The notes under the pieces: generated by a model
Told to the model about the DNA's origin: nothing
Database searches by the model: none
What the model saw: only the letters and a program-made list of their open reading frames with translations
Source of the DNA: Cyclina sinensis
Taxonomy: Eukaryota; Mollusca; Bivalvia; Venerida; Veneridae
Assembly: GCA_012932295.1 (NCBI GenBank)
Contig: JAAONU010000016.1
Span: forward strand, 31,309,290 to 31,373,289
Direction: 5' to 3'
DNA length: 64,000 nt
Part shown: positions 7,309 through 41,686 of the stretch, piece by piece
Position numbering within the stretch: the first letter of the stretch is position 1
Layout of the letters: every line of letters starts with the position of its first letter
Position numbers and translations under genes: made by a program

Positions 7309-7815
7309 CTATTGGCGTTCCACATACACGTCTACCACAGTCTCGGCGCCGCCGATTATTAACACATCGTCCGCAACCGTAGCCTTCCTAGCAACGTATC
7401 TCTTGCCGACTTGGTGGACAGGAACCTCCACGCCATCCAACACTAGGACCCTTTTACTCAAAAGGAGGTCAGCCGGTCCCTTCTCTCCTCCTCTGAGGAT
7501 GTCAAAACCTAAAAGCGCATCATCCTCGATGTCCGCAACCACTACCTCATGCACGATCTCATATGTACCAAGCTTCAAACTAAATTCTGCTTTACCCTTC
7601 TCTCTAAATGGTAAACCATCAGCTCCTCGAAGCTTGCCACCCTTCTTTAACTCTGGCCTTCTTGACAAGTCTATACCCTCAAATATTCTGGTTGACAACA
7701 CTGTTCTAACAGCTCCCGTATCTGCCGTAAACAGTGTTTCAACTCCCTCTACCGTGCCGTGTATGTACACCCCATCACACAATTCCTTCCTGTTGGCCTT
7801 TCCACTGCCCCTCAA
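7309..7815 (-). pseudogene. Gypsy aspartic protease
   Basis: An open frame of 168 codons in a different frame from RT. It shows the retroviral-type protease signature: the catalytic Asp-Thr-Gly in LFTADTGAVRTVLS (about residues 31-33), a GADGL flap-like segment, and DALLGFDIL as the second hydrophobic-Gly motif. Its size suits a Gypsy protease domain. It would process Gag-Pol as a dimer. The domain itself is intact, but it cannot be translated with the broken gag upstream or the interrupted RT downstream. The frame change from gag may be an original -1 slip or later damage. Confidence 0.82.
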
Positions 7816-7862
7816 TCCATCATCATTATCTCCCTTTCCTAGTCTATTGTGGCCCTCATCTC

Positions 7863-9437
7863 TTAAAGGGACCTTCTCCCGGCCACTGGGGTTGGTCCCT
7901 TGAAGTTTAAACTCGCCCCTTTTCTTGAGGGCCCCTGATTCTCGACTTCGGAAGGCTTCCGGTTCTGCTGCAATTCCCCTCCTGCCTCTGATCTTTTTTT
8001 AGGGCAATTTCGAGCATAACGTCCCATTGCGTGGCAGTAAAACCACTCGATCGCGTCATTACTTCTGCCATTTCTCTCCCTCTTAGGTACTTCATTTTCA
8101 CACTTACCGGCTCTCTCAAGCTTTTCTAGCCTCTCTAAAATTTTTGAGATAACTTCTTCTTGCTTACTGGCTGGCTGACCGTTATGCTTCACCCCCTGTC
8201 GCCGGAAAGTATTTTCTTGCTGATGCCTCGCATCGGTCCTGTCTGGTACCCGCAATACATTTCCACAGGTGTACACATCAAAACCCTCGTCACCCTGCAT
8301 AGTGCGCCGGGCATTTTTGTACCTTTTATTTTGTCCGCTACTTCTCGTTTGGATGAGGTTCACCACATGGTAGACTATCGTCTATCGTTTCCGGCATCTT
8401 GTGAAATTACACCCCAAAGCGAACCTCGTCGTCGCGTAGGCCGTCAAAGAACCTTCTGACTAGATCCTCCTCTCGCGTCCTCTTATCGCGGTAGCCGTGG
8501 GCCTTATCATATAACATTTTCCAATCCGCGGCGTACTCTTCGGCGGTTTCGCCGACTCTCTGATTTCGCCGGCTAAGTTTCGCCGCGAAAGATCGCGCCG
8601 TTTCTACAATGCAGAAGCGATTATGCTGCTCGGATACCAGGTCGCCATAATTACCAAGGACTTGATTAGGCAACTGCCCAAATAAGAATTGAGTAGCATG
8701 GCCTCCATCCGGGGAAGAAACTGATCTAGCTTTATTTCCTCGTCCCAGCTATACCTTTCAGCCACGGCTTCGAACCTTGCGATCCATATCTGCCAGTCTT
8801 CCTTGCCTTTGAACGTTGGAATTTTTGCGTTGTCTGTTGCCCTCATTCGCGCATCTCTCCTGTTAATGGTGAAAATATCTTACCGTCCGTCCGGTCTGGC
8901 ATAGCCCATAGTCGCCCTCATATTGGCTGAGTTGGCATTAAAATCTTGCCATGGTATCCTTTGCCCCACTTCACCACGGTGACTATGGTAACGGTCTGCG
9001 TTGTAGAACACATTTTGGTGAGGCAAGGCCCCTACGTCACCTTGCTCCGTACTGGACTTTAATTTAGCCCTATGCATAAGACTAGAATTTTCATGCTAGA
9101 CTGCTAAGTGTGACATGGCCCGTTTAAGGGTCTTGAGCTCTGCGACGACCTCCTTAAGGACCCCGGAGATATCACTATAGACTTGATCAGACCTGGTTAG
9201 GCCACGGACTGGCGTATCCGTCATAGACGTATTTATCGCTGCATCAGCGTGTATCGGGCTGTACTGTGCGGCGGCGTCGCCGACCTCACGCGACATGGAG
9301 GTTCCTAACATAGGCTCGATATCTGAAACTGTCTGCAAAATACAAGAACGAGATAGCCCCCTATGGCTTATAGCGTCGGCGTCCTGCCGACGAAAATAAA
9401 TCTCCCCTTCACTGTCTACCGGGGTGTGATTTTCCAT
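7863..9437 (-). pseudogene. Gypsy Gag (capsid and nucleocapsid), broken
   Basis: The likely start is the ATG at 9437, the first after the 5' LTR and primer site. The N-terminal part (9437-8880) continues past an in-frame TAG at 9096-9098 and stops at a TAA at 8880-8882. The capsid-like part follows, with the retrotransposon-gag pattern IPTFKGKEDWQIWIARFEA (frame ending 8604). It shifts frame near 8690 and continues to a TAA at 8407, then shifts again near 8375 into the nucleocapsid part (8366-7863). The single zinc knuckle is degenerate: in WFYCHAMGRYARNC the first Cys is Trp and the His is Arg. Gag would form the particle and bind the RNA; this copy cannot. Confidence 0.82.
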
Positions 9438-9487
9438 ACTGTAATACGAAGGTGTAGGTACGTTTCACTGGATCCCCGAACGTCAAG

Positions 9488-22023: not shown

Positions 22024-23829
22024 GACATACAATGTAAACGGAATTTCAAAGAAAAAGAAAAAAAACTGCAGTCTTATAGTGGATTAAAGCACTATGTGCT
22101 GATATATGTATGTTTCAAGAAATACATTATAGAAGTTAAGACAAAGAAAAATGGAAGAAAGATTGGGATATTGGCGAAATAATATGCAGCGGTAATAGTT
22201 AAAATCAAGCTGGCGTAGCGATTCTGATAAAAATAGTTAATAGATAAAAATAACATAAAAAACTGTAACAGTCTACGAAATTAACATAGGAAGATTACTA
22301 GCACTTCATATTCAAACGTTTTATTTATAAATATTTATGGTCCAAATAAAGATGATGCAATATTATTTAACACACTAGAATATCTTAAAAGGATAAATCT
22401 GACATATCCTTTTTGATGGGTGGTGATGTTAACCTTCCCTTAAATCTTGCTATAGACGACCAAGGAGAAAATCAGAATACTCACGTGAAATGTCGTACTT
22501 AAATAAAATAAAATCCTATTAGAAGAATATGATCTTAAGATGTATACAGAAACGTATGGTCCTGATAATAAAAAGTTTACTTGGTGTTCTTTTGTACGAC
22601 CAGAAATTGCTTGCAGATTTGACTGTTTATTTTTCGCAAAAATATATCAAATTCAGTAATAAAAACAGAAATCAAACTGAGCTTTAACTCTGGTCACTCA
22701 ATTGTATACAGGGAAGTCGATTTTGAACCGGTTCAAAGGGGACCAGGCATATTTAAGTTAAATAATAGTTCACTTTTATATAATTAATATAAAGAAAAAA
22801 AAATAAAAAAAGGTCAATTAAAGAAATAAGTAAAATAAATAACAGACAAGATGGGAAATAGTTAACAGCACAGTTACAAATGAATCAATAAAATATGCCA
22901 AGTACAAAAAACCACAAAAGAACAAGAGCAAAAAACTTATAAATGAAACTGAAAATTTAAAAGAGAAGTTAGCAGATCATTATAATGAGGCTCATGCCAA
23001 AATCTGGAAGATTAAAAAACAGAACTTGACGACTTATACAACAAATATATAAATAGCATTATGAAAAAAAATAAAAAGCCTATAATTTAAAATTAGATAA
23101 TTAAAAAAGAAACATTAAATGCCTTAAGATGCCTTAAACAAAAAAAACGTGGATAAAAAATTGTTAAATAAAGATGTTTATATCATTACTGATCAAAGCG
23201 AAATACTTATAGAACAAAAACAGCTCAAAAGACGGTGATCAAAGCAAAATACTAATATTACAAAAAAATCTATGAAAACATTTATCAGGCAAAACAACAA
23301 ACAGAATCTAAATATAATATTCTCGCAAATACAAATATAAAAAATAACGGAAAATGAACAAACAATCTGATAAAGGACTGATAAAAGAAGAATGTAAAAA
23401 GGCAATAAGAGAAATGAAAATTAAAAAGGTAAAAGTCGTGGGTCTGATGGTTTAAATGTAGAGTTTTTTAATATTTTGAAGTGACGTAAAAAAAGACCTA
23501 ATTGAATCTTTTATTTTTTCTTTTCAAAACAGTCCCTTATATCAACGACAGGCATAGAGTTTAATCACTGTTTTACCTAAGGCAAATGAAGATCTAACAT
23601 CATTAAATAATTGGGGACCTATTAGTTTGTTGAACGTTGGATATAAAATAATTGCAAAAGTAATAGCCAATAGAATAAAGTCAGTGCTACATATTTTAAT
23701 CGACTATAGTCAAAATGGATTCATAAAAGATGGAAACTAGGTAGGAGAAAATATCAGAATCTTGTATGATGCCATTGAACATTCCGAACAAAATCATACC
23801 ACCGTACTTTTATTCCTTGCAGATTTTAA
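22024..23829 (+). pseudogene. L1/Tx1-type LINE ORF2, first half (endonuclease and start of RT)
   Basis: Decayed but readable in shifting frames. The apurinic-type endonuclease starts TYNVNGIS near 22024, followed by a QE(I/T)H-type box near 22120 and GVAILI near 22215. The NIYGPNKDD segment lies near 22330 and FTWCSFVRPEIACRFD near 22580. Then come RGPGIFKLNNS (near 22735), GSDGLNVEF (near 23440, the KSPGSDG region) and the RT stretch LPKANEDLTSLNNWGPISLL with following KVIANRIKSVL (23570-23690). It stops abruptly at LLFLADFK (23805-23829), in the middle of the RT domain, where the TTAA transposon begins. Multiple stops show it was already decaying. The second half resumes at 40130. Confidence 0.88.
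23826..23829 (+). repeat. TTAA target-site duplication, left
   Basis: TTAA directly abuts the left terminal repeat. The partner is 40126-40129. Confidence 0.85.
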
Positions 23830-23860
23830 AGGGACTGACCCAGATCCTGGTGAATTGAAC
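23830..23860 (+). repeat. Left terminal inverted repeat of the TTAA transposon
   Basis: The first 16 bases match the right end with one mismatch; the next 15 match with a one-base gap and a few changes. Confidence 0.85.
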
Positions 23861-24088
23861 TTTTTAAAATAAAATATCATAAAAAACAAAAATAACACTG
23901 CACATTTTTTAAATTATACAAAATATTATAACTGATACATTTCTTGAGAAAGAAACTTTTCGAATAATGAAATTATAGCGCCTGTATGTTTCTATAATTT
24001 CAATCCGTTGCAACGCTTTGTATTGTAAACATTGGTCTAAATTTAGAACTACCTGATTATGTAGCGGCGATAATTTTACCACAATCGT

Positions 24089-24094
24089 CACGTG
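24089..24094. promoter_or_regulatory. CACGTG box upstream of the transposase-like gene
   Basis: A palindromic E-box 61 bases before the proposed start codon. A TTGCGCATGC motif (NRF1-like) follows near 24114-24123. A matching CACGTG lies upstream of the other gene at the opposite end. Promoter role inferred. Confidence 0.4.
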
Positions 24095-24154
24095 GTTTTC
24101 AAAAAAACGACGATTGCGCATGCTTCAACGCAGTCGAGAGTCAACACAAAAAAC

Positions 24155-27100
24155 ATGGGGAAGCCTAGGAAAACGGACAGCGAAAAAAAGAAATCAAATA
24201 AAGCCAGATACGAGCGTTACAAAAAGAGGCAAGTAAATGTAGGAGACCAAGCTGACAGATGGTCGGATCTAAGAGGAATTGTTGGTGCAGGCAGCGACAG
24301 GGATTTCGCGAAATTGTTGATAGACAGGTTAGTTGATTTTGTTGTGGGGGCTGTCTCAAAATAACGATTTGTCGACATAAACATTTTTTTAAACCATTTT
24401 TCAAGTGATTCTATCGAATGATCCTTTTCACACAATAAAGTTGCTCAAGACTAGTTTATTTTTGAAATCGTCCTGCATGAAAGGATCCGAAAGGACCCAA
24501 TTTTGCATTTGGTGGACTATACTGTCATCTGTTCATATTTCATTTAGTTGCAAGCAATCTCAAGGGATAGATATAATAAAAGCAAGATCAGTCAAGCAGT
24601 CACACTCGTGGCTTGTATCAGAATGTGCATGATAATGAACAAAAATGTTGGCAAAAGTAAAAAGATTGAAATCAAAAGAAGAGATAAAAGGCTTTACAAA
24701 TTTACAGTTGAAAAACTAGTCGAAGAAGCCTAAACTTGAACAAATTTTTGTCCATTGTGACTGATAATACACTGAACAACTTTTATAAACCGCCACCTGA
24801 TATTTTTGCAAAAAAAGCACTTGTTGATTGTGTGACTTTTCCGTCTGAAGACCCAAAAGTTAACCTTTTTCAAAATTTATGATATTTTTCTAAAGAATAT
24901 GGAGTAAAATGTTGTATTTCAACAAATGTTTTTCATAGATATTCAAATTTATCGTATTTTGCAAAAATATTAGGTGGCGGTTTATAAAAGTTGTGCAGTG
25001 TACAGTGTGTTCCCTGCTTGGAAAGTGTCTGCAAAGCTGTCATGCCTTATGAAGTGGTAAGATAACTCCCTTTTGAATGTTGTGAAATAGGGTAAATTAT
25101 GAGTCCCACAGAGGAACACAATAAATTAAAATATTGTTTCACCTATTTCAGCATCACTACTTCACTGCATTTACTTGTACATTGTATTGCTTTGCTCTTA
25201 TAGAATAAATGTTTTGAAATTTTAAAAATTGCAATTAAAAATTCAAAAAGTAGCACTAGGGTTATCTGTAGACTGTCTGCAGTTTTACCCAGACTGTAAA
25301 CAGGAAAAAAATAAGATAAAACAATTTTCACTAAAATCTATAATTTTGGTGGAACTTAATTATTACAAAGATAATCATTTGTTAATTTGTCATTTTAGTT
25401 ACCTTCAGAAGCATTCTATGTCTACATTGGTAGTGCACCCTGCGTCAGAAAGGGCAAGGGCATCATCAACCCCTAGGGAAAAGAAAGTGCCAGTTATGAC
25501 AGACCCTGGATTGTCATCTGTCACCGAAGGAAGCGAAACTTTGACAGGCACAGAAGGGGAAGCTTCAGATGTAACTTTTGTGTAAGTTTTCTCAGTAGAC
25601 ACAATTAACTTCTTTGTTCAAGACATCTATAGTTACTTCACACTTATTATCAAAACATTAAAACAATCTGCTTATAATTTGCATGGTTACAAAGCATAGT
25701 AAAATGTATATTCAAAGCAAGAGATCAGAATTTTTGTCATTGAATAAGCAAAAAACATGGAATTGGCTTTGCCTAGTCACTTAATTGAATATTTCTATTT
25801 AGCATACCATAAGTAAAGTCAAAACCTGTAATTATAAGTTATTTTGTTTTAGTGTCAGATTTCTTTTTTTTTTTTTTGGCCAAGTCTCTTTTTCACTTCA
25901 TGCAAGTAGAAGTTCTTAGCACCTGAGAAGTTTGAAAATATTTTATATAGTCAGCTGATATAGCTTTACTTAGTTGTGTTGGTTTGTTTTGTTTCAATTT
26001 GCTTTTTGTTGTGCATCATGTTTAATTTAAGTTATGATGAGGACTAATAGCAGTGTATGTTTGACTTAACAGGTGTGCAGGTACTTCAGGGTTAAAAAGA
26101 AAGAAACCGCAAGATGTAATATACCCCAAGAAAATTAAAAAGACTAAATAGTAAGTAAGCTTTGTATGTTCAGAATCAAATAACAATTTGGTGCTGAACA
26201 TTTTATACCATTCAGTTGTATTATGGCAGTCTATCTTTTTAAGCCCCTGAAGGAGGCATAAGGTTAATGACCTGTCTGTCGGTCAGACAGTGACTTTGAC
26301 CCCTGGGCGACCTTTTGTGGGTTATTCTTTGGATAATTGTAAGGGTTGTTTTTCGAATGCATGTTGAGAGCTTTTTTTTTTCAATAAAATAGTACTGTTG
26401 GACTACTATTGATGCTCTTTACTTTACTCCAGGAAGTTAATACATTGTTCATTTAAGTGCATTTGCTTAGTGCTAGTTTTGATTGCCCTGCTCACTGTAT
26501 AATACATGTAGTTATTTTACTTAGATAAGTTTCATTGTTGTTGGACGATATGCTCAACAAAATATTTTTTCTGTCTTTCATTCACTTTTTTCAAGATACA
26601 CATATGATTTACAATTGTATAAATATCAAGCCATTTAAAAAACCTACACTGTAACAATCTTATAATGTAATAAGTGAATAAATACATGGTATAAATATTA
26701 TAATTATTATTAGTTTCAATTACTTATTAAATATTGATTTCAGTTCAGCAAGTATTCAATCAACATTCAGAAAACCAAGTGCAACAAGGTATTTTTTTTA
26801 TCTCAACTTATGTTATTTGACTGCACAAGCAAGCCTCAGTGTAACACTAAGTACCTTGACACATGACGTGTAAAGTAAACTCCATGTTTCATGGTCATTT
26901 TGTTCATGTTTGCATTGTCAGGACTAGTGCATATATGTATATATTTTCGCTGTAATTCATTGAGATAGATAATAAAGCATAAGTAAGCCAGTGTTACAAT
27001 TTGGCATCAAAGTTTTGAACCATTTGTCTTTCCGTCTGTCCATTATACATCTTTTTTAACCTTGAAGTGAATTTGTAAGTTGTCTGGCACATCCTGGCCC

Positions 27101-30100
27101 TCTTGTATAAATGATTAATGTACTTTATCAACTACACTGCAGCTAATAAATGAAATTATGCTGATTTTGTAGTAAGTAACCAACATTGATATCCACAAGT
27201 CTTTTGCAGCTTTAGAACTTTTAATGATACATTTTGTATTCTTCTGATGTATAATGTAGGGTACAGATTGACATATCCAAAACTGACTTGGAGGATTTCT
27301 ATGATGTAGATTATGACCCTGATGATCCAACATACCAGCCACATGAATGGGATATATCAATTGTGTAAGTATAAAGTTTAAACAATTGTATTGTTCTGAA
27401 GGTTACATGTATCACCTTATTATTGATTGACTGTAATGACCATTTCCACAATGACACTGTCATAGAAAACACACCTTGCCTGTACAAACAATGTACTTTT
27501 ACACTTCAAAATATGATTCACTTTTGTTATTTATAATGATTATACTGTTCCTGTAAAGCATAAGTTAATAAATATATATAAATACATATTTTACAGATAT
27601 TATAAAGACAATAACATGATTTACATAGGTGTTCATCAGGATGTGAACTTTTGTCTTTCATATATAAATTTTCATTTTCTCGCTGTTATAAGTATTTTTG
27701 TATAAAATTGTTTTTAATAATAGAATACATGTGTATTTCTGATTCAATTAGCTTGTATTTTGTTAAAACATGAAGTTATGAAAGTACCTGTCTGTAGTCC
27801 TTTTGGTTAATAATGGTGTGAAAAATGTTGTATCTTATTAAATTCCTTTTTATACAGACAATCAGATGATGGCCAAGTGGAAGAGTATGATGTTGATGGG
27901 ATTGATGAGGATGTCTTCGACATAGAATCCAGACCTGAAGTGGAGGAGGAGGAGGAGGAAGTAATAGATGTTCCAACACCAAGCAGTGTAAAACATAAAA
28001 CTGAGGTAACAGAAGAAGACATGGCAGAGGAAAAGTATGTGGTGTGCAGAGAGAGCCTAGAAACTCTCTTAAGGCTTTACCCAACCAAGTTGTGTGCTGT
28101 TTGTAAGAAGAACATTACATTCCACATTAAAACGAATGGATGTACCGCCATTTCTACATGGGTATGCTGCTTTTATAGGTGTTCTTGTTTATTAAAATAT
28201 ACAGAGCTATAGTTTATCTTGCAACACAAGTGTGTGAACATTACTAAAGTCACATAATGCTTTGATTTCTTTACACTAAAAATGAACTGAATGTCCATTT
28301 AGGTTCATAGTTAAACAACATAAATGGCTCAAGTTTATATAATAAGGTATAATCGATAATGAAAGGTTATCAAATCAATATGTTTTTTTATGCAAATAAA
28401 ATAAGTTTCATGACATATGTTTAAGAAAACAGTACTTGGTAATTGGATCAGATAGTAAACAGATGTTATTCAGATTTTTTTTTAAACTTTCACAAAAATG
28501 TGGCAGTCTTACTTTAATTGTGTTTGGTTTTTTTATTCTAAAAGTGGAAATTTGATGATATGCTGGCTTGTTATATTTCAGGTTTGTGCAGATGGTCATG
28601 AAGCTTACAGGTGGTCTAGTTCACCTTTACTGCGAAATGGAGTTTACAGTGCCAATCTTCAGGCTCTATCTTCCATATTAGTCTCTGGCAACAACTTTAC
28701 AAAGCTAGCTTTGTTTGCCAAATTCCTTGGTTTGGCATTTCCTGGGTCATCATCCTTCTTCAGAGTGCAAAACAAATGTGTAGTGCCAGTTATTGACAGA
28801 TACTGGAATGTTATGAGAGACAGTGCCCTTGAGGAGCATAGGGCTGTTGACATTCTTGTTTCAGGTAATTTAGTTTTCACCCTTATCAAATTGTTTGACT
28901 TAATTCACTTCACTGAACAAAATGGCGTATGATTGCAATAAAAGAAAAAAATGCTTTCTTTTTGCGAAACCTTTGATACCATGCTATGTATTTAACAGGA
29001 ATGTTGTCTTTTATGTAATTACTTTGAAGATGATATGAAATGTTTCCTATCCATTATTTTGTAGAAACTTTTATTTTTTTCTTACAGGAATAAAACTCTT
29101 TAATTTTTATAGGTGATGGTAGAATGGATTCCCCAGGTCATTGTGCAAAGTATTGTACATATACCATAATGAATCAGGAAGACAAAAGAATACTGGCCAT
29201 GGAGGTAGTTGATAAACGTGAGACTGGGCTGAAGTCGGGCTTGATGGAAGTAAAAGGGTTTGCAAAAGCAATGGAAACTATACAGAGTGAAGGTGTGCAA
29301 GTGAAGGAAATAGTGACAGATGCCCATCCTCAGATCTCAGCCAAAATGAGTCAGTATTCAATTTATTTCAACCTTTTTCGTTGATGCTTTACAAGCATGT
29401 AGATTTATTTTTTGATATTTACAAAACACATGACATTGAAAGTATACATGAAGCATTTCTGTCTTTTTTTCTTTCATATTTCATGTTGCATTCCCATATT
29501 TGTATATGCAGCAATTTTTTACGTTTAAAGATGTAGTTATTTCCATGAAATAGAAACAAATATTTGTGTCATTATTTTTCACCTTTGTACATATCTGAAT
29601 GTATGTTAGATAACTAAAATGATGAAGTAGAATGTATTTAAAAATTTCCTTTCTACCTTTCTTTGAAATCCTGCTTTTTTTATTTTAGAGAAGTTCTATC
29701 CTAATATTAGACATAGCTATGACATGTGGCATGGTGCCAAGAATCTTGGAAAGAAGATTTGCAAGGTAAAAGTTCAGCTATATCATATAAAAAAGGTTCA
29801 TTAGCTACTGCAAATGGCTGTAAAAACCATATTAAGTGTAAAATTAACACTAGTATACTTATATTTCGATTAAGTATACATACCAGTTTATACAATATTT
29901 ATCATATAGCAGTGAACATTTAGCAGTATGTGTTTTGTTTTAAGTCAATACGACACATATTAAGGTCATATGGCAACTTTACAGCTTTATGGTGGAGAAA
30001 AACCCCAGGTTTTCTCCGGACATTATTTCAGACATAGACAGCCACCTGGGTAGAACCACTGATGTCCGCAAGCCGGCTGGATGACTTCTCACAAAGATTC

Positions 30101-32942
30101 TCGCCCGAGTAAGGTTTAAATCTACAGCGGTGAGGGGCAAGTGATTAGAAGTCACCAACTCAAACCACTCAGCTTCTGAGGCCTTTAATCCTATTTAAAT
30201 GAAATTAATCAATTTATCATTCTGTCTAGTTAAAGTTGGCAACGAGGGCTTAAAACCATGGCTGAAAGATATCACCAACCACTTCTTTTACAGTGCAGAA
30301 ACATGTAATGGAAATGTGCTTCAGATGAAGGTATCAATACACTTCTTTAATTTTACCTGTTTTGATTATAATTTCTGTAGGGAATAACTTGTTCAAAGTT
30401 GGAATAAATTAGTTATGAACATGTAATATAAAATAATCCCATTACTCACATTCAATGTCCTCTGTAATCCTAACTTTGAATCATTTGTTACTTGATAAAT
30501 ATGCTTTCAAGCCAAACTGGGGACGTGTATTCTTATACATTTATGTAAGAAAAGGTCATGATGATGTCAGGTCATTTGTTGTACCAGTGTGTTACTGTAA
30601 AGAGGGTGTCATAGGCATTATTATACCAGTTCAATAATGTTGGGAGGAACAATATTTTGGAGATGTTCAGGTTTTCAATTTGATAAATGTACCCTTATAG
30701 ATAGATGGTTTATGATTTCTATTGCAGACGAAATGGTTGTCACTTATGAATCATATTACAAACAGGCACAGTTGGGCATTGGGCCAGTGTGACCATGGTC
30801 CTATAGAAGAAGACCCTGATAAACCATGGCTTAAAAGATCAAGCAAAGTGGTGAAAGATTTGGAGAAGCAAGTGATGGAAAAGAGACTTATGAGGACATT
30901 TCCATACTATGTAACTTGCCAGTAAGTTTCCCGGACAAAAATGATTCTAGCTATCTTTTGAGTAATCTTTCTTTAATTTCATAATGCATGTTGTTTCTAA
31001 AGTGCTGACAGAATGTTATTTCTATAAGTGTAAAATGTTGTAGTTATGTTTTACTTGGATCATGCTTCCCTTGATATTGTTTTCAAAAGAACATCATGTG
31101 AGATAGTAATGTTAAACTTTTGCCTTTTGATTTCATTAAAAATCCCCAAATATATTTCTTTGATTTTTTTTATTTCAGAACAACGTCTGAATTAGAAACG
31201 TTCAACAACCACCTTCTCATGTATGCACCTAAAAGAAATGCTTTCAGGTAAGTACTCTTAACGATCTTCTTTTGTTCTTATATAGTAATATCTATATGCT
31301 TGTACCATCACATTTATTACAAGTATTGGTATAGTTTCAATCAGGAACCAAATTAAATATTCATTTTTGTTCAAAAATGAAATAATTAAAGTGAAGTTTT
31401 GTATTCCTATGTTGCAGTTATGATGTGTACAAATGTCGTTGTCAGTTGGCAGCCATAGATTATTCAAAGCACATAACTAGGAAACAACAGTTGGACAAAA
31501 ATGGGAACCCAAGGTAAGTATTGTCATTGAAATTTGCAAAGATATTGCTGTGTCTGGTGCTCTGATTACATTGAGTAATTTTCATCCGAGTAGGTGATTT
31601 TTAACTAGGTCATAAAAGTTCAATCTATATGGAATATTATTCAGTATGGAAAATCGTGTATTTTTTGGTATTTAGAAGTAGCCAAATTAGAGCCTATGAC
31701 TAGGAAGAATTGCAGCATTTGTGTTCTTCAAATAATGTGATGCAAAGCTTGAAAATTGCTTGAGCTAGACTTTTACCTACAAGCTTATCACATTACCTCC
31801 AACCCATCCATAAGATGATGTGTTTAAGAAGGATTATCGAATACAAGATTCTTGATAATCCCTATTAACCTTTAACCTTTGAATATTAAGAGTAAATCAG
31901 AGTTCTTGACTTTTTGCCACAAAAGGAGAGATTTTATGCTTATTATGAATGTAGGAATCAGTTTACTTTTTAGCTACTGACAGTGGTTTTCTTTTTAAGG
32001 CCCCCGAAGCCAGGACTGTCCGTCAGTCAGCATGTCAGTCATTCCGTCCCAAAAACTGTAACATTGGCCATAACTTTTTTAATATTTGACATATTAACTT
32101 CATATTTGGCACAATAATCATTTGGACATGACCTTTCTGTAGGTTCATTCAATTTTGACCTTGACCCCCAGATGACCTTGACCTTGAAAAAACATTAACA
32201 TTGGCCATATCTTCCTTATTAGTGAACATATTTACTTCATATTTGGACACAATAATCCTTTGGAAATGACCTTTCTGTAGGTACATATATTAGTGACCTT
32301 GACCACCAGATGACCTTGACCTTGAACATAGTTTTCTAAAAACTTTTAACATTGGGTATAATTCCATATTAGTAAACATATTTACTTTATATTTAGACAC
32401 AACATTCCTTAAGACACATACCTTCTGACCTTGACCCTAGATGACCTTGACCCCTTGATGACCTTGACCTCGAACATAGATTTTTTCCATAGGGAAGTGC
32501 TTTGCTTCGGGGGCACATGTCCGTTTACAACGACAGCTCTTGTTTGCTACTGGCATTGAAAATTATGTAAATATGTGTATACATAAGTGAAAGTTGGCGT
32601 GTATCTCTAGTTATCATTTAAATTACTTACATGTACATCATACAAATGACCTCTCTTTTCAGAAATAAGCGTGTTCATTCCAAAGCAGCCAACAATTGGT
32701 CTGTTGTGCCTGTGAAAGAACCGAAGCAGTACTCCTACATACCAGAATTGCTAGTTGAAATATGCAATGAATATAGTTTGAAAACTAAAGGAAAGACTTT
32801 AACTTCAAAAGTAAAAAGACCAGCAGGCCATCCTAAGAACATAGCAAAGACAATTGCTCCGGAATCCCCACCTCCAACAGCTGAGCTTGCAGCAAGGAAA
32901 GTCTCTAGAATTAAGGGGAAGACTACCAAGGAAAAAATGTGA
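24155..32942 (+). CDS. Transposase-like protein, 14 exons, 739 codons as modelled
   Basis: Exons joined at GT-AG sites: 24155-24327, 25399-25581, 26073-26150, 26744-26788, 27260-27364, 27858-28161, 28582-28864, 29113-29349, 29689-29765, 30235-30330, 30728-30921, 31179-31247, 31418-31513, 32663-32942. Phases agree at every junction except exon 9/10 (see separate entry). Residues 1-58 are basic with an RWSDLRG...FAKLLIDR segment. Residues 195-250 are very acidic. A Cys/His cluster (C274, C277, C290, C298, H302) precedes the core. Core candidates are the D392-G-R-x-D396-SPGH motif, TDAHPQI (D460) and YDMWH (D481), as in an RNase-H-fold transposase; E517 is a possible fourth residue. A conserved-looking LMYAPKR segment is in exon 12, and the C-terminus is Lys-rich. 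I recall similar uncharacterised multi-copy proteins in fish and invertebrates but cannot name the superfamily. Confidence 0.8.
26238..26345 (+). repeat. Fragment of the 'GCCCCCGAAG' modular repeat, in intron 3
   Basis: Starts TTTTTAAGCCCCTGAAGGAGGCATA and then GTCTGTCGGTCAGACAGTGAC, a decayed left end of the family seen at 31995 and 56913. The right end is missing. Confidence 0.5.
29765..30236 (+). other. Intron 9 junction of the transposase gene does not join in frame
   Basis: Exon 9 ends in phase 0 at TGCAAG, followed by GTAAAAG. The protein then needs GTT at 30235, giving VGNEGLKPW. The available acceptors are CTAG (30228-30229) and AAAG (30234-30235); both put a stop codon into the next few codons. 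A one-base loss at the acceptor, a non-AG acceptor or an assembly error would explain it. Confidence 0.6.
29930..30183 (-). repeat. tRNA-headed SINE in intron 9
   Basis: The minus strand starts with a tRNA-like GCTGAGTGG box-A region and continues ATCACTTGCCCCTCACCGCTGTAG, a degraded box B, CATCCAGCCGGCTTGCGGA and a 3' part containing CTCCACCATAAAGC. It is the same family as 35503-35785. Its tRNA end lies about 50 bases from exon 10. Confidence 0.75.
31993..32545 (+). repeat. 'GCCCCCGAAG...ACAGCTCTTGT' modular repeat, TGACCTTGACC core (intron 13)
   Basis: The left end is TTTAAGGCCCCCGAAGCC and the right end is CTTCGGGGGCACATGTCC...CGACAGCTCTTGT. Three internal units of roughly 130 bp carry ACATTGGCCATA, TTACTTCATATTTGG, CACAATAATCCTT and TGACCTTGACC segments. 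An inverted relative lies at 37738-38147 in the same transposon. Confidence 0.78.
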
Positions 32943-33670
32943 AATTTATTAACAGACCTTGCTTGCTAGTGGAGGTGGCTAACAGTGCTATAATTTACAG
33001 TAATGTTAAAAGTTTTCTGGTAATAACTGCCATACTACCGTTAACCTTTAAATTATTGCAGTTTAACTAATTTAGGAAGTAGGTTATGTATTGATACCTT
33101 GATAAGTGTTGCTTCTTTTAGCACTTGTTTGAAGGACTTTCCTATTAGTAACTGTTCAATAACATGACTGTTTCTTTATTCAGACATTTGAAATCTTTAT
33201 TCAGACATTTGAAATGAACTAAAAGAAAACTGTGTCAAAAAAATTAGAAAATGTAATGTATCATTTACTATTTTGACAACAAGAGCCATGTAAGTTCTCT
33301 CTCCCCCACATTGAGGCTGTAGCTCAGTTACACTCAATAACTGGAGTCTTGTAAAATTATAGGATAATTTGCCTAATTGAAAAAATTATCCCGTACTTTT
33401 TTTCTCCTGTAAGCAGGTGTGCCTTTGTCATCTTTGAGGTAAAATAGTTTTGAATTGTGTGAATTAAAATATTATGCATATGACGATATGAAGGGAGGAC
33501 TATTTACCTTTTGACTTTTCATTTTTTGAGAATTGATATAATTACTTGGACATATATTTTGAATTACTGGTGATATTGTCACTGACAGCCAGTCCACTTC
33601 AGCCTGATGTAATGGTTTTTTACACTTTACCTGGCAAGACATTATTCAAGGCCATTGGTCCATCCATTGC
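32943..33670. other. 3' side of the transposase gene, no further gene
   Basis: Non-coding A+T-rich DNA after the TGA at 32940-32942. It probably holds the 3' untranslated region; no polyadenylation signal stands out here. Confidence 0.45.
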
Positions 33671-33674
33671 CAAG

Positions 33675-33835
33675 AGTTTCTACGAATTACTTGCCCCCAA
33701 CCAATGAAGGTCAAAGTGTATAATCTTTCATGTGGAGAAGCCATCCTGATGGCTAGCGGAATAGCTAGAGTTCTGTTTTCCGCTTTCCCCGCTAAGCTAT
33801 AAGGTACCAGTATGACCTGTATATGTGGACTATCC
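33675..33835 (+). repeat. Diverged SINE relative
   Basis: GAATTACTTGCCCC, TTTCATGTGGAGAAGCCATCC and GGCTAGCGGAAT align with the body of the SINE at 35503-35785, at much lower identity. The tRNA-like head is not clear. Confidence 0.45.
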
Positions 33836-34181
33836 CCCCCCCAACACACACTCTATTGTTAAAGCGCAGGTGTATGAATCATTTGATCATATTGGCAAGG
33901 TGGTTTTTTTTTCTGTGGAGTTGGAAAGATTATAATTTGTTAGAAGTCAATCGCATTCCACCTATGAAGTATTGGAAACACTGGTTAGCATATGTAAACT
34001 GACAGTCGTATATGACTGAAATTCTGTTGAGAAACATCATTAACCCGACACAAACAATATTAAGTGAATAAACATAAAGAAAACAGTCCTGTACTTTACA
34101 TATTACTTTATTTGCAAATTTGTAGATTTAGTCAATGATACACATGTATATAGTCAAAAAATGTGATAGCAGTGTACTCTT

Positions 34182-34355
34182 TTAACCCTTTCTTAGTCAG
34201 TCTTCAATTTTCAGACATATTAAATGTCACTTTTATGGATTATAGGGTATGACAGAACAATGACCATTACAGCCTGGTCAACCGGCACGTTTTTTGTACT
34301 GGTTGACCCGACTGTCTACTGGTGGCAAAGAATTTTCAAGCATTGAAAGGGTTAA
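34182..34355. mobile_element. Small piggyBac-like MITE
   Basis: TTAACCCTTTC on the left and its exact reverse complement GAAAGGGTTAA on the right; the palindromic match extends to 14 bp (34179-34192 and 34345-34358). The internal 150 bp is non-coding. The TTAA+CCC end is typical of piggyBac-mobilised MITEs. It sits inside the 16.3-kb transposon, between its two genes. Confidence 0.72.
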
Positions 34356-34359
34356 AAGC

Positions 34360-35490
34360 CAACAGTCCAAAGCAGCCATTCACATTTGTTTAACGAAATG
34401 ACTAGTTTTGTAGTGAAGATACCTCTATTTAGCAGCACCATGCTTAAAATGTTCACTTTTATTTTTCCCCTTGTCTAGCTGCTTCTGACAGGTAACAGTA
34501 TGTGAGGGTATTCATCATGATAACAGTAAATTTTTTGGCATTATAAATATTGTCATCTAAGCAACATACCAATTGTTTTCACTATGTGCTTACACAAATG
34601 TACATGCAGTCATTTATCTCAAGATAAAATACAGGATCAGTATCATTAAAAAAATATTTTGAAAAATAATGACAAAATTTTAATGAAATTTGTCACTTTT
34701 ATTGAATAGAACTTTATTTGTAACATATAACAACAAATGAGGCATTTATAAGGATATTGGTTTGAAATTGACAAAATTACCATTACTTGAAACTTCATAG
34801 GAGATGTGCATATCCCTGGCATGTTTAAGTTAGATTTTTTCCGATTTATGGCCCTTTGGTATAAAATGCTAATAGTAAATGAGGTGCATAAATTGATATT
34901 TATGTCACCCAAATTTGCTAGAATTCAACAATACAAAATGGAAAGTTTCACTACCATATTGCAAGGTCAATCTTATGACTGTACTTCACAATGTGGATAC
35001 ATCTCATTATGTAGTATTGCAACTTGTATATTAATAAACACCTTTTTCTGTGACCAACAATTTTTTTCGGTGAGCATTACCCGGTTCTTACCGGTTTTTG
35101 TCTTTTTAATAGTCATATTTCTTTTATAGAGAAAAGTTTGAAAAAAAAAACTTTATAAGGCACAAACAACCATTATTTTTACATGTATATATATAATTAT
35201 GTTGTCCCACTTGTATTTTGTTAACCTTCATTTTTGCCTGTTTTGTACCTTTAAAAATAATGTGTCAAACTTGTAATGAACTTAAGAAATTGTTTTTATT
35301 TGTCTGTATGGAATACCTGTAAATGGTAAATTCTGGACTTTAAATTTTTGGGTTTTTCCAAGGGGGTGCAAGTATCTTTATTTTAGACCGATTGAATTTC
35401 GTGCAGCACACGAGTGCTTCTTTAATTATTCAAACAGATATAACAGTACAAGTTATTATACTGATGGATAAGTTTGGAAGACCCCATGGA
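34360..35490. other. No gene seen between the two converging genes
   Basis: A+T-rich non-coding DNA inside the transposon. No third gene was recognised. Confidence 0.5.
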
Positions 35491-35502
35491 AAAAAAACAA
35501 GG

Positions 35503-35785
35503 TGGGGCGTCTGTGGCCGAGTGGTAAGAGTTGCTCTGACTTAGAATCACTTGCCCCTCACCACTGTAGGTTCGAATATCACTCAGGGCAAGTCTTTTTC
35601 ATGTCAGGAAGCCATCCAGCTGGCTTGCGGAACGTCAGTGGTTCCACCCAGATGCTCGCCCGTGACTTAAATAATGTCTGGAGGGTCATCTGGGGTCTTC
35701 CTCCACCATTAAAGCCGGAAAGTTGCCATATGACCTTTGTATGTGCCAGTATGACGTAAAACCCAGCAAAAGCAAAACAAAGCAG
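35503..35785 (+). repeat. tRNA-headed SINE with intact promoter boxes
   Basis: The head GGGGCGTCTGTGGCCGAGTGG has a good box A (TGGCCGAGTGG), with box B GGTTCGAATAT about 50 bases on, as in tRNA-Ser/Leu-type SINEs. The body has GGAAGCCATCCAGCTGGCTTG and a conserved-looking GGGGTCTTCCTCCACCATTA; the tail is A-rich. An 8-bp direct repeat AAACAAGG (35495-35502 and 35786-35793) is the likely target duplication. It could belong to a mollusc-wide family such as RUDI/V-SINE; that name is a guess. Confidence 0.8.
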
Positions 35786-35794
35786 AAACAAGGA

Positions 35795-36375
35795 AATAAG
35801 TAAAATGTTACAAGTAGTTTTCAGTAATATTATCCTCAGATGTACAAATTGAGCTATGTTAAAAGAGAGCCACCGGCCTATTCAACATTCAAAATATTAA
35901 AGCTCTAGGCTTTGGTGTTATGTTTAAGATGATTTTTCTGTCTGTATAAAAATTTTATGCTAGGTGAGGACAATGACTTTAGTAAACTTGAAAGATGTAG
36001 CAACCTTCCTATAAATTTCAAGTGGTTCAAAGAAGATGCTGTTTAAAGAAAAAAATATACTATAGACTTGATCAATACTATTTAAATACTGTGGCAGGTA
36101 AGCTAAAATACTAATGGATAAAACATTGCACAAAATAAAATAACATCTCTGAATAGACTGGAAGTATTTAATCTTATGACTAGGTGAAAACCAAATACCA
36201 ATCAACTTAAATACATTTTAGAGTGTTATACATGTAAAATAATCCATGAAATAAATTTTGAAGGTCAATAAATAATAATGGAATTTTTTTTTTGCCTTTG
36301 GTATGTACAATGTAGGAAAGAGGATATATCAATTCTTTACTTTTTTGTACAAAAAAAAAAAACAATGTTCATCAT
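35795..36375. other. 3' flank of the ballast-like gene, no gene seen
   Basis: A+T-rich. It would contain the 3' untranslated region of the minus-strand gene. Confidence 0.45.
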
Positions 36376-39300
36376 TCACCACCCAATGCCATGCTGAACT
36401 GGAATAAAACCAGTGTAATGTCCTGATGGGCTTGGAAATTTGTCCCTTATAACCTTTACACAGCAGGCGGGAACAGTTCTCCGATCGTCTTTCTGCAGCC
36501 GCCCATAGATCCACAGCACATACTGTCTGTAGGCAGCATGCCTCATGCCTTTGTTCGTGTCTTCTATATTGGCTGCTTCTTGCACAAACACGTCGTTCCT
36601 AAAAGCTTGTTGAATATGAAGTGTGAGTGGGTCTGTAACAACCAATCCCATTTCCTAAAAAAAGGGGAAATACACTAAAATAAGATTAAATTGCAATGAT
36701 TCTAACAGAAAACATGCATCATTCATTTAAGCTGTTGGAAGCTTTTGTTAAAGTAAAGTCTCACAGTCTGTAAAACATATGTGTCTCTTTTATGGAAACT
36801 AAGAAATATACACATATAGAATTGCCTTATTCATGACTGTTACTGATAGTTTACAGTTTATACAGAATGTTTTTTAGCTCTATTGTTTATGAAGCTTGAA
36901 GCTTATAGATACACTCTCCCGAATTTGTTCCTAGAACCAACCAGTGCTGAGAAATGATTATTAGTTTCTTGCTTAAGGAAACAACAGTCGGCCCCTGATG
37001 AGGTTCAAACACGCGCGGACAGCAATCCTTCGATTACAAGTCTGACATGTTACGTCTCGGCCATGCCACCACTCTGTTCAGGGTGGACTGTACAACACTG
37101 GCAAATCAGTACTTCTGCTCTTTATTGAAGGGCTATAATTAAAAGCAAAAAATGAAACATTAAGCAAAACTACTTACTGGTCTTATACTGTTACAGAACT
37201 GTGGTGCCATCCCACAGCACACCTTGTCCTCATCTCTCTCCATCGGTGGACATTTCGTACATATACACCATGACGGATGAGGGATTGATGGTGCAGGAGA
37301 ACCTTGATCAGGCGATTTTGCTTTTTGCCTGCGGGACAATATTTCAGCGATGTCTAAAATAAGGGCGGGCTGTCTGCTTGCCACTTCTTTGAGCATGGCC
37401 TTAGACTCCTCCTCTGTTAGGCTATCTATCATTTCCTGTCAATAAAACCAAATGTCATTTATTATATAATACTACTTCTTTTATGAAAGTTGAAACATAT
37501 ACATTGAATTTACAGTATTTAACAAAACTTCTATGTCATTACTTGAAGAGGGAATCAATCAATAAGTTAATACACAAGATAACGCAAAAACTTTGCAAAA
37601 CACTTCATGTGTGTCAGTTCTGAACTAAAGGAAATCTTGTCTAAGTCTTTCCACATCAGGGCTTTTGTTACAAATGTACATTTTGAGACTTGTGCCAGGG
37701 TCCATGTGAGGGCTAATTAAAAAAGAAATATTTCTGAACAAGAGCTGTCGTTGTAAACAGACATATGCCCCCGAAGCGAAGCATTTCCCTATAGATATAA
37801 ATCTATGATCAAGGTATCCAGGGGTCAAGGTCAGAGGGTATGTGTCCGAAGGAATGTTGTGTCAAAATATGAAGTAATAATGTTTACAAATAAGAAAACT
37901 ATATATGGCCAATGTTAAAGTTTTAAGAAAATACTATGTTCTAGGTGAAGGTCATCTAGGGGTCAAGGTCACTAAGGTTTTTTTTTACATTCAGAAAGGT
38001 CATGTCCCAAGGATTATTGTGTCCAAATATGAAGTAAATATGTTGCCTAATAAAAAAAGTTATGGCTAATGTCAAAGTTTTTGGGACAAAATGACTGACA
38101 GACGGACAGTTCAAAAACTATCTGCCTCCCTTAGGGGGCATAAAAAAATATTTCTGATAAGCATATATTATTAAGCATTGTTCAATTTGTTTACATTTGC
38201 AGCTTCTTCTCTCTCTTCATGCAGTCTGACGAGGTGTTCTTCCTCATCGTCTTGAAACTGAAGTCCTCGAAACACCCTTCCACCCCTTCTTCCTCCTCTT
38301 CCCTTGCCACGCCCTCTTCCTCTACCTCTTCCCCTACCTTTACCAGAGAGCAATGGTGAATCATCATCATCGTCACTGATGGAAGCTGGAGATTCCTAAC
38401 ATTAATCAATAAAAAAATTGATTATACTAGTGGATATATATTATTTTTGTCAAAACAAAAGGGTGCCTTTTAAGAAATGTACGCTAAGCAATGTTTTCTT
38501 ATAATTTAAATGACTATAATTGCGACATCCTAGCCAAATAAAGAGCCATTGAAAAAAATAGCACAATTTACCTTTTCTTCCAAAAGAAATATATATAACT
38601 AAGACAAGTTTACATATTTTAATTGGTTCAAAAACTTTGCACCTAAGGTAATTTTGTTTGTATGTCTTGCCAATTTAAAAAAAAACAAAACTGATGGGAT
38701 TTGATAAAGAACCTACTTTTTACCCGCAAAATTTTATGAAATATAATTTCAAATATTACAGAAAAACGACCTAACAGGAAGTGTAATGTACCGTTTCAAT
38801 GTCTTCAAATTCAAGGGCAAGTCGTGCTCTTTTTCGTCTTGGACGTCTACCTGCACTAGTTTGAGGCTCCTGTAAGACAAAAGTACACATTTGTTTGATG
38901 TTACTTGTATAAACCATGGTAGATGTATGTCAACATAAACACTTTTGTCTTGCTACAGTATGAACAAAGGTGCAATTATCCTTCCCTACAAAATTAAAAA
39001 AAAAATAGCAATAAGGTACAGTGGTACACTGACATCCTTTAGAGTCGATGTGTCTTGAAATCACTTTCCCCACACCGCTGTAGGTTCGAGACTCACTAGG
39101 GGTGTCCGTGAGATTTTTTCATGTGAGGAAGCCATCAAGCTGGCTTTGCGGAGCATCCATGGTTCTACCCAGATGCCTGCCTGTGCCAGAAACAATGTCC
39201 TGAGTGGCATCTGGGGTCTTTCTCCACCATTATAGCCCAATAAAAACAAACAAAAACACTGACATCCTTCAATTGTAAAAAAATACTGTTATTAGTGTGG

Positions 39301-39872
39301 GAAGATGACCATTGAAATCTATTCCTTTAGTTGACTTGATAATAATTATGTGGCACATCAAATCACATAAATAAACCTTTTTCTTTACATAGTTTTACAA
39401 CTTATCATGATCTATTTTTCAATCTTAAGGACTGCTTTTAACAAATAAATACTATTTTATATCTCAATGTTGCAGACAGATAGGCAGCTTAGTAATAGTA
39501 CACTGCATCAGTTTGACATTCATGCCTGAAACATACAGCACTTTAGCATTTTTTTCATGGACTATGTAATAAGAACACGATTGTCAATGGTCAGACATGT
39601 CCAAGGCAGTGATGATCATGTGTATATGAAATTTAACAAATTGCGTTTAAAATGTTTTGATATGACCCCTCGCTATTGCTATCAAAACAATTGGATTATA
39701 TTCCTTTGTTTACGACTACATGGCCATATTGAATCGTGCGTTTACATTGCATTCAAATCAAATTTATATAAAGTTGATATTTAACTATAATACTATTTCA
39801 AAAACAATGTGGTAAGGAAGAAATAACATAAATACTAACGTCTTCAATATTTGACATCGATGTGTCCGCCAT
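36376..39872 (-). CDS. P2X7-ballast-like, Arg-Gly-rich nuclear-type protein (5 exons, 282 aa)
   Basis: Exons on the minus strand: 39872-39840, 38869-38792, 38395-38195, 37435-37178, 36654-36376. All introns are GT-AG and all exons are in phase 0, giving an unbroken protein. The start is the first ATG (MADTSMSNIED). Residues 16-28 are Arg/Lys-rich, like a nuclear signal. D45-D49 is an acidic run, and G55-R77 is a GRGRGRG-type box, usually RNA- or nucleic-acid-binding. Residues 160-282 match the Cys-rich intracellular 'ballast' domain known from the vertebrate P2X7 receptor: WCICTKC (C161, C163, C166), CC at 177-178, C185, HAAYRQYVLW (229-238), VPACC (251-255) and IRDKFP...GHYTGF (259-273). No membrane segments or channel part are present. 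In P2X7 this domain binds zinc and guanine nucleotides; here the role is unknown. It lies within the transposon, opposite to the transposase gene. Confidence 0.85.
36958..37078 (-). repeat. tRNA-derived SINE of a second family, in intron 4 of the ballast-like gene
   Basis: The minus strand reads GGTGGCATGGCCGAGACG with box A TGGCCGAGACG. About 55 bases later comes GTTTGAACCTC as a degraded box B, then an A/T-rich end. The body does not match the SINE family at 35503. Confidence 0.6.
37738..38147 (-). repeat. 'GCCCCCGAAG...ACAGCTCTTGT' modular repeat, inverted copy (intron 3 of ballast-like gene)
   Basis: Begins ACAAGAGCTGTCG...CATATGCCCCCGAAG and ends CTCCCTTAGGGGGCATAAAA on the plus strand. 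Internal GGTCAAGGTCA segments match those of 31993-32545 in reverse, giving an inverted pair about 5 kb apart within the transposon. Confidence 0.78.
39026..39269 (+). repeat. 5'-truncated SINE with 14-bp target-site duplication
   Basis: ACACTGACATCCTT occurs at 39026-39039 and 39256-39269. Between them is a SINE of the 35503 family that begins in the middle of the tRNA-like head (GAGTCGATGTGTCTTGAAATCAC), so box A is missing but box B GGTTCGAGACT is present. It ends with a CAATAAAAACAAACAAA tail. It lies in intron 1 of the ballast-like gene. Confidence 0.85.
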
Positions 39873-39897
39873 GTTTCTCGCAGTTTTACACTCGCAT

Positions 39898-39903
39898 CAC
39901 GTG
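39898..39903. promoter_or_regulatory. CACGTG box upstream of the ballast-like gene
   Basis: A palindromic E-box 26 bases before the start codon on the minus strand, next to a G/C-rich stretch (39904-39931). It mirrors the CACGTG at 24089 at the other end of the transposon. Promoter role inferred. Confidence 0.4.
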
Positions 39904-40095
39904 ACGCTTCGAAGGTGCGCGCTGAAGGGCATCTCCTGTTATTTTTAAACCGGGAAATACTTTCCAGTGTTGATGGGACCTGCGATCTTTTCTAATATTT
40001 TCTACATATAACACAAAGGATTCCGCGACTTTTAATTAATAATATATTGAAATGTATTTATATGATATATTCATGTTATTTTTACACACTGGTAA

Positions 40096-40125
40096 GTTTA
40101 CTTCACCATATCTGGGTCAGTCGCT
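40096..40125 (-). repeat. Right terminal inverted repeat of the TTAA transposon
   Basis: The reverse complement starts AGCGACTGACCCAGAT, matching the left end in 15 of 16 bases. Confidence 0.85.
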
Positions 40126-40129
40126 TTAA
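40126..40129 (+). repeat. TTAA target-site duplication, right
   Basis: Directly abuts the right terminal repeat; partner of 23826-23829. Confidence 0.85.
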
Positions 40130-40929: not shown

Positions 40930-41686
40930 ACAAGAGCTGTCACTAGAAATTGACATATGCCCCCGAAATGTAGCTTTGAAATGAAACTGGTGTAAATATA
41001 TAATTGAATGTGCCTGTGGAAAAGAGATCAGACAAAAAATAGAGCAAGAACTGAATGTAAATGGTAACACGTTCTGGTTTCAATAAAATCCCACAAACGG
41101 TTTTGGAGCTGTAGCTTGGACAAGATTTTAATAAAGAAATTATAGTACAAAATGACTACGGGCCAATAACACTGCCAAAAATAATCTGAGCAGAAATTCT
41201 TGACGATATACACAAAAAAGCTTGTTGACAAACATGCCTGTGAAGTTTCAATGAAATTCTCCAAGCGGTTTTGGAGATGAACTGTGGACAAACTTCAATA
41301 TAGAAGTAAGATTTAAAAAATGACTATGTGCCAATAACTTTGGCAAAAATAAATCTAGCATAATCTCCTGACGATATGCACAACTACGCTTGGAGACAAA
41401 CATTCCTGTTAAGTTTCAATGAAATCTCTCAAGCGGTTTTGGAGATGAAGCGAGGACAAGATTTTACAGTAAAAATGACTAAGTTCCCATAACTCTGCCA
41501 AAAATAAATCGAGCGGAATCTCAAGATGATATGCACAATAAGACTTGGTGACAAACACTCCTTTTAAGTTTCAATGAAATCCCTAAAGCTGCTTTGGAGA
41601 TGAAGTTAGGACAAGATTTTACATGACGGACGGCCGGACGGACAGACAGTGCGATTACTATATGTCTCCCTTCGGGGGCATAAAAA
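40930..41686 (-). repeat. 'GCCCCCGAA...ACAGCTCTTGT' modular repeat, 'GGTTTTGGAGATGAA' core, minus copy
   Basis: On the plus strand it starts ACAAGAGCTGTCACTAG...ATGCCCCCGAAATG and ends CGGACGGACAGACAGTGCG...CTTCGGGGGCATAAAA. Four to five internal units of about 130-150 bp each carry GTTTCAATGAAAT, AAGCGGTTTTGGAGATGAA and TGACGATATGCACAA segments. It matches 56913-57917 in reverse. Confidence 0.82.

What the first reader, a model, noticed from the sequence alone, without database searches (positions are those of the whole stretch)
23830..40125. A 16.3-kb TTAA transposon carrying a transposase-like gene plus a P2X7-ballast-like gene
Near-identical terminal inverted repeats, TTAA on both flanks, and insertion between adjacent codons of a LINE RT define the element. 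Inside are exactly two multi-exon genes. The second encodes a stand-alone domain known from the cytoplasmic tail of the P2X7 receptor. Ballast-only proteins are known in invertebrates, but their linkage to a transposon is, to my knowledge, not described. If copies recur, this is a two-component transposon system, and it would explain why P2X7-like fragments are numerous in some animal genomes.
Basis: partly seen in the sequence, partly recalled or inferred. Interest (0 to 1): 0.9.

Follow-up and report, generated by a model that had tools for sequence, protein, structure and literature searches.

The report
Two-gene Kolobok transposon with P2X7-tail protein
A 16.3-kb jumping DNA element in what is likely a bivalve genome carries a transposase gene facing a gene for a protein domain otherwise known from the tail of the P2X7 receptor; this pairing recurs in the genome and likely belongs to a transposon group published in 2022, so it is a well-supported new example rather than a new kind.

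Summary
The element spans 23830-40125, with imperfect terminal inverted repeats, TTAA on both sides, and two convergent multi-exon genes. A paralogous locus on the same chromosome holds the empty site with one TTAA. One gene encodes a DDE transposase; the other matches Pfam P2RX7_C at 8.9e-26.
Kojima & Bao 2022 (PMC9587614) describe Kolobok "Kol0" transposons that encode a DDD/E transposase plus KolX, a ballast-fold protein, and derive P2X7's tail from KolX.
Of 59 ballast loci, 31 have a transposase locus within 20 kb (0.13 expected), 24 of them convergent. A sister family with other ends forms a head-to-tail trimer of 16.6-kb units sharing single TTAAs.
Added here: amino-acid change is about as restrained in KolX as in the transposase (dN 0.175 and 0.167, synonymous sites saturated), and the two genes co-diverge. 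This copy's transposase is likely damaged at exon 10. New member of a known kind; interest moderate.

The parts
23830..40125 (+). Two-gene DNA transposon, 16,296 bp
   Evidence: Ends, TTAA and empty site:
23826..23829 (.). Left TTAA target-site duplication
40126..40129 (.). Right TTAA target-site duplication
23830..23862 (+). Left terminal inverted repeat (33 nt, imperfect; AGGGACTGACCCAGAT...)
   Evidence: alignment
40094..40125 (-). Right terminal inverted repeat (32 nt; AGCGACTGACCCAGAT...)
   Evidence: the same end with a different flank lies at C1:33506690
24155..32942 (+). Transposase gene, 14 exons (24155-24327, 25399-25581, 26073-26150, 26744-26788, 27260-27364, 27858-28161, 28582-28864, 29113-29349, 29689-29765, 30230-30330 (start uncertain), 30728-30921, 31179-31247, 31418-31513, 32663-32942)
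   Evidence: Splice sites and frame; relatives (54 proteins, best 72% identity in Dreissena polymorpha); catalytic columns
30230..30330 (+). Exon 10 of the transposase: wrong frame from the AG ending at 30229, net 4 nt fewer than the C18 sister before the conserved Asn-Glu; frame kept only if the inner AG at 30245-30246 is used, which drops conserved residues; likely damaged
36376..39872 (-). KolX-like ballast gene, 5 exons (39840-39872, 38792-38869, 38195-38395, 37178-37435, 36376-36654), 282 aa, open frame
   Evidence: P2RX7_C 8.9e-26; P2X7 chains, best 6.5e-13
36376..37435 (-). Exons 4-5 of that gene: the ballast domain with seven conserved cysteines (C161, C163, C166, C177, C178, C185, C254)
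38195..38395 (-). Exon 3: acidic run then RG-rich basic tail (SGKGRGRGRGRGRGKGRGGRRGGR)
23591..23825 (+). Left part of the decayed LINE reverse transcriptase that received the insertion (resumes at 40130)
29937..30173 (-). Dispersed repeat inside the element (other copies 35516-35762 and 39041-39237 on +)
32033..32544 (+). Second dispersed repeat (inverted copy 37737-38100)

Best explanation
This is one copy of a two-gene DNA transposon, a DDE transposase facing a KolX-type P2X7-ballast protein, likely a bivalve member of the published Kol0 lineage of Kolobok, which likely moves by cut-and-paste into TTAA sites. Shown: ends, TTAA on both sides, an empty paralogous site, both genes, recurrence of the convergent pair, end-to-end sister copies, restrained amino-acid change in both proteins, and their co-divergence. 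Inferred: the transposase pairs and cuts the AG...CT ends with its predicted RNase H-fold D396/D460/E599 site and joins them to TTAA. Inferred: KolX is an obligate partner in the nucleus, with its RG-rich tail holding nucleic acid and its zinc-bound, perhaps guanine-nucleotide-binding ballast holding or regulating the transposase complex, much as RAG2 serves RAG1 in the convergent two-gene RAG-like transposons. The window copy has an open KolX frame but a likely damaged transposase, so it could now likely move only with help from a sister copy.
Against: 28 of 59 ballast loci have no transposase match within 20 kb, and 20 of 49 transposase loci no ballast match within 20 kb; some may be decayed or below the search's reach (119 of 194 transposase candidates were scored), but free-standing copies are not excluded. 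The C1 copy holds the ballast gene without a transposase in the 20 kb read. Co-divergence among six non-redundant loci alone is weaker (Spearman 0.70, Mantel p 0.058). With synonymous sites saturated no dN/dS ratio can be given for the C18 pair. No Kol0 reference sequence was held, so lineage placement by tree was not done. The KolX role is untested: two of the five GDP-contact residues named for rat P2X7 (R574, K583) are V256 and S265 here. The Foldseek E-value of the ballast model to P2X7 is only 1.6e-3 and the model is of middling confidence (mean pLDDT 69.8). The fish linkage rests on names and contig lengths, not coordinates.
Confidence: 0.88

Rival explanations
1. KolX is not a transposition partner but a self-serving passenger: a captured host-facing protein (for example one that dampens silencing or times expression), carried between the ends and kept because it benefits the element indirectly.
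For: No call shows that KolX touches the transposase or the ends; the published P2X7 ballast holds zinc and a guanine nucleotide. Many ballast loci lack a detected transposase (28 of 59).
Against: The pairing appears in gobies too and across two deep clades in this genome, with correlated divergence.
Confidence: 0.35
2. piggyBac-type element with TTAA targets that picked up a ballast gene (the 2022 paper notes a few piggyBac families with a KolX-like protein).
For: TTAA duplication; the published remark.
Against: Termini are AG...CT, the Kolobok 5'-RR/YY-3' kind; the transposase has the DxxH motif between the second D and E and an ISCth4/Hermes/P-like core in a relative's model; no piggyBac profile was reported; the ballast keeps all seven cysteines, which the piggyBac versions mostly lack.
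Confidence: 0.03
3. KolobokP or another composite Kolobok lineage.
For: KolobokP is rich in bivalves and also has two genes on opposite strands.
Against: No direct repeat of 30 nt or more joins the two ends; the second gene is a ballast protein, not a His-Me nuclease.
Confidence: 0.03
4. Two unrelated host genes happen to lie between chance inverted repeats.
For: None seen.
Against: Only pair of its quality among 116,510 TTAA pairs, empty site, recurrence of linked pairs.
Confidence: 0.01

Closest known systems
Kolobok superfamily, Kol0 lineage with KolX (Kojima & Bao 2022, PMC9587614; type Kolobok-1_XT)
   Same: DDD/E transposase plus a ballast-fold KolX protein; TTAA duplications; 5'-RR...YY-3' termini; DxxH signature.
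   Different: Found here in what is likely a bivalve (the passage read names vertebrates, annelids, cnidarians and sponges as examples); 16 kb with 14 + 5 exons; a sister family forms TTAA-sharing tandem arrays, which I did not see described for Kol0 in the parts read. No direct sequence comparison with Kolobok-1_XT was possible.
Xenopus XKol Kolobok elements (PMC6004289, passages only)
   Same: TTAA, AG-type termini, full-length copies up to 13.9 kb.
   Different: The paper's main text does not contain the terms KolX or P2X; its passages name H2CH and AVPTIF domains in XKol transposases, while Pfam gave no N-terminal domain here.
KolobokP (PMC9587614)
   Same: Superfamily; two genes on opposite strands; common in bivalves; tandem multimers.
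   Different: KolobokP has long terminal direct repeats and a His-Me nuclease; its multimers typically share a whole terminal repeat, those of the C14 sister here only a TTAA.
P2X7 receptor ballast domain and Nanor (PMC7016195, passages only)
   Same: Sequence and predicted fold of the ballast; seven cysteines; R546, H547, R578 kept (R228, H229, R260).
   Different: Stand-alone protein without a channel part, with an RG-rich tail; R574 and K583 not kept.
RAG-like transposons (PMC7204232, passages only)
   Same: Works-like comparison: transposase and partner in convergent genes between TIRs.
   Different: 5-bp duplications, RAG1L/RAG2L proteins; no homology claimed.

Membership tests
[quoted passage not shown]
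   TTAA at 23826-23829 and 40126-40129, single TTAA in the empty site
Kolobok superfamily | Termini 5'-RR ... YY-3' | tested here: met
   AG...CT; AG...CT also in the C14 sister
Kolobok superfamily | DDD/E transposase with C/DxxH between second D and last E | tested here: met
   D396, D460, D481-x-x-H484, E599; invariant or nearly so in the 38 relatives aligned; RNase H-type model of a relative
Kolobok superfamily | Zinc finger between DxxH and the last E | tested here: inconclusive
   Conserved C549-x-H551; the full set of ligands was not worked out
Kolobok, Kol0 lineage | Encodes KolX with the cytoplasmic ballast fold | tested here: met
   P2RX7_C 8.9e-26, P2X7 chains, seven cysteines, fold of a relative
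Kolobok, Kol0 lineage | Transposase groups with Kol0 references in a tree | not tested
   No Kol0 reference sequences or the paper's supplements were available; goby relatives with a likely linked ballast gene are consistent
KolobokP | Long terminal direct repeats of about 450 or 660 bp | tested here: not met
   (repeats of 30 nt or more): no direct repeat between the two ends
KolobokP | His-Me finger nuclease as second protein | tested here: not met
   The second gene is P2RX7_C
piggyBac | Termini unlike 5'-RR | tested here: not met
   Termini are AG...CT; the contrast with piggyBac is stated in PMC9587614
P2X7 receptor | P2X channel domain joined to the ballast | tested here: not met
   The 282-aa protein matches only P2RX7_C at E <= 1; my gene model starts at an ATG in exon 1

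The most novel reading that the evidence does not exclude
The P2X7 tail descends from an obligate transposase partner: KolX is a required subunit of a two-protein Kolobok transposition machine, and Kol0 elements also multiply as head-to-tail arrays whose units share one TTAA, a second way of propagating (by end-to-end targeting or a circle carrying a TTAA spacer) without the long repeats that KolobokP uses.
Probability: 0.3. Interest if true: 0.72.

Novelty: new member of a known kind. Interest (0 to 1): 0.42.

Why it matters
It gives an anatomically complete, genome-wide case for a claim that the one paper found treats in two short sections: that the P2X7 ballast is at home in a transposon. 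The new numbers (linkage 31 of 59 against 0.13 expected; similar restraint on both proteins; co-divergence; an empty site; near-identical sister units) move "KolX is encoded there" towards "KolX is likely kept there by selection", which makes its role directly testable by a two-plasmid transposition assay. It also warns that some "P2X purinoceptor 7-like" annotations in invertebrates are likely transposon genes.

Tried and rejected

Rows left out: alignment A1 used 38 of 54 transposase relatives; A4 used 16 of 20 ballast relatives (four short or intron-read ones dropped); A2 used the window protein plus 3 of 4 hits. For the small-element check 8 of 18 inward pairs were fetched, from the 100 places listed of 4,468. 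An ungapped comparison of the two trimer junctions gave 668 of 690 equal bases, lower than the 99.8-99.9% of the transposase stretches; an indel may shift it, not checked. On checking this report I found an inner AG that keeps exon 10 in frame, and weakened "frameshifted" to "damaged"; I also corrected the count of LINE copies and the account of TTAA beside the small elements. The odds did not need to change.
Full report
1. Observation. The window holds a 16,296-bp element at 23830-40125. Its first bases AGGGACTGACCCAGAT pair with AGCGACTGACCCAGAT read inward from 40125, and TTAA lies outside both ends. Out of 116,510 pairs of TTAA sites 0.5-20 kb apart in the window, it is the only one with at least 14 of 16 inner bases matching.

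2. Empty site. Joining the flanks over one TTAA gives a 499-nt stretch that is present, uninterrupted and 98% identical, at C8:30895487-30895985, 0.44 Mb away on the same chromosome. The similarity runs at 94-95% to both ends of the fetched piece, so it is a paralogous duplicate of the locus without the element. The flanking DNA is a decayed LINE reverse transcriptase. Fourteen further places cover at least 480 of the 499 nt at 76-85% identity. Five of them were read, and all five have TTTGAAAAGGCG where the window and its paralogue have TTTTAAATAGCG: the TTAA target likely came from decay of the LINE.

3. Genes. On +, 14 exons give a 740-residue protein if exon 10 is started two bases in; on -, 5 exons give a 282-residue protein. 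The two genes converge. Six other ORFs of 90 aa or more inside the element have no Pfam match. The transposase has 54 relatives at E <= 0.001, in bivalves, lancelets, fish, sea urchins and a coral (Dreissena 72%, Ruditapes 60%). D396, D460, DxxH at 481-484, C549-x-H551 and E599 fall on conserved columns. A model of the full-length Ruditapes relative has an RNase H-type core with best solved matches ISCth4 and P element (Foldseek) and Hermes and ISCth4 (VIA-align). Pfam gives the window protein only weak MULE and ISL3 matches below cut-off, and 2 of 8 scanned transposase relatives pass the Mutator model's cut-off.

5. This copy. From the AG ending at 30229, exon 10 reads in the wrong frame. Against the C18 sister it has a net four nucleotides fewer before the conserved Asn-Glu. 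Only one AG between 30060 and 30300, at 30245-30246, would keep the conserved frame without a stop, at the cost of conserved residues. The copy's transposase is therefore likely damaged: frameshifted, or shortened in its core if that inner acceptor is used. The ballast frame is open throughout.

6. Recurrence. The genome (903 Mb, 154 contigs; unnamed) has 94 exon matches to the ballast protein and 120 to the transposase core (for the latter 119 of 194 candidates were scored). They cluster into 59 and 49 loci. Of the 59 ballast loci, 31 lie within 20 kb of a transposase locus, against 0.13 expected for independent placement. Of the 31, 24 are convergent, 6 same-strand and 1 divergent; 5 of these last 7 lie in the C11 and C18 arrays, 2 on C12. 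28 ballast loci and 20 transposase loci have no such partner match. Counts are lower bounds and array units are not independent.

7. Mobility. At C1:33506690 the right 5.07 kb of the element recurs at 99% behind a different flank joined at TTAA, then breaks off into other DNA; no transposase was seen in the 20 kb read. A sister family (52% in transposase exon 8, 46% in ballast exon 5) forms a head-to-tail trimer on C14. TTAA stands at 4791607, 4808206, 4824806 and 4841413, so units are 16.60 kb and neighbours share one TTAA, with other DNA outside both outer TTAAs. Its three transposase loci are 99.8-99.9% alike over 3.26 kb, so the array is likely young. The ends are AGTCCCATT..., different from the window's. 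The exact left-end pattern occurs at nine places: three on C14, four on C11, two on C18.

8. Selection and co-descent. Against the C18 sister, dN is 0.175 in the ballast gene (176 codons, exons 4-5) and 0.167 in the transposase (236 codons, exons 7, 8 and 11), with synonymous sites saturated for both. Across 11 linked loci both genes split into the same two groups (window, C18, C9; and C2/C16/C14a, C5/C7, C11/C14b), Spearman 0.78, Mantel p 0.0006; with six non-redundant loci it is 0.70, p 0.058. I take this to mean that KolX is needed for the element's success (inference).

9. What is known. A bivalve transposon survey lists 43 Kolobok consensus elements and says Kolobok, with Zator and Academ, is almost only in bivalves among the molluscs studied (PMC10294476, passages). 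KolX occurs as a word in one paper of the library.

10. Membership and mechanism. The Kolobok features tested are met, apart from one inconclusive zinc-finger row; a tree with Kol0 references could not be made. Most likely mechanism: cut-and-paste into TTAA by the transposase, with KolX as partner; the analogy to RAG1/RAG2 elements, whose genes also converge (PMC7204232, passages), is one of working, not of descent. The step from "kept by selection" to "partner subunit" is inference.

11. A side line: small elements. The end type of the C18 sister, TTAAAGNGAYTGACTCACA, occurs 4,468 times in the genome (control 0). Among the first 100 listed, 19 neighbours lie closer than 2 kb (about 1 expected), 18 of them facing inward, and 17 of those 18 span 390-458 bp. 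TTAA and the 15-base ends are part of the search pattern, so their presence in the 8 fetched copies is by construction; independent are the constant length (425-441 bp), the shared inner sequence and the differing flanks. They look like short non-autonomous elements moved by a relative of this transposase (inference).

Noticed in passing
G000:C14:4791607-4841416 (L069, L070, L072, L073): Head-to-tail trimer of a complete 16.6-kb two-gene sister element whose units share a single TTAA; how such arrays form is open.
   Followed up: partly
Genome-wide; examples L081-L088: A family of small elements (425-441 bp in the 8 read) with ends TTAA-AGCGACTGACTCACA, thousands of end matches, and a tRNA-like box (GGTTCGAATCC; label recalled) inside some copies.
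   Followed up: partly
window 2372-9464, - strand: Remains of an LTR-retrotransposon-like gag-pol (RVT_1, RNase H, Integrase_H2C2 matches), split over several frames; described only.
   Followed up: no
window 24768-25002: Two 46-nt inverted arms, 96% complementary, inside intron 1 of the transposase gene, a possible small inserted element.
   Followed up: no
G000:C8:30895487 (L075) and window 22082-23830/40125-41911: A 94-95% duplicate of the locus 0.44 Mb away without the element; it offers a way to date the insertion.
   Followed up: partly
window 41077-41621 and 57009-57637: Related repeat blocks in the window's right part.
   Followed up: no
G000:C11:47.91-47.99 Mb and C18:6.00-6.05 Mb: Further arrays of the C14-type element (99.3-99.6% and about 97% alike to it over the stretches compared), with other spacing and some inverted units.
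   Followed up: partly
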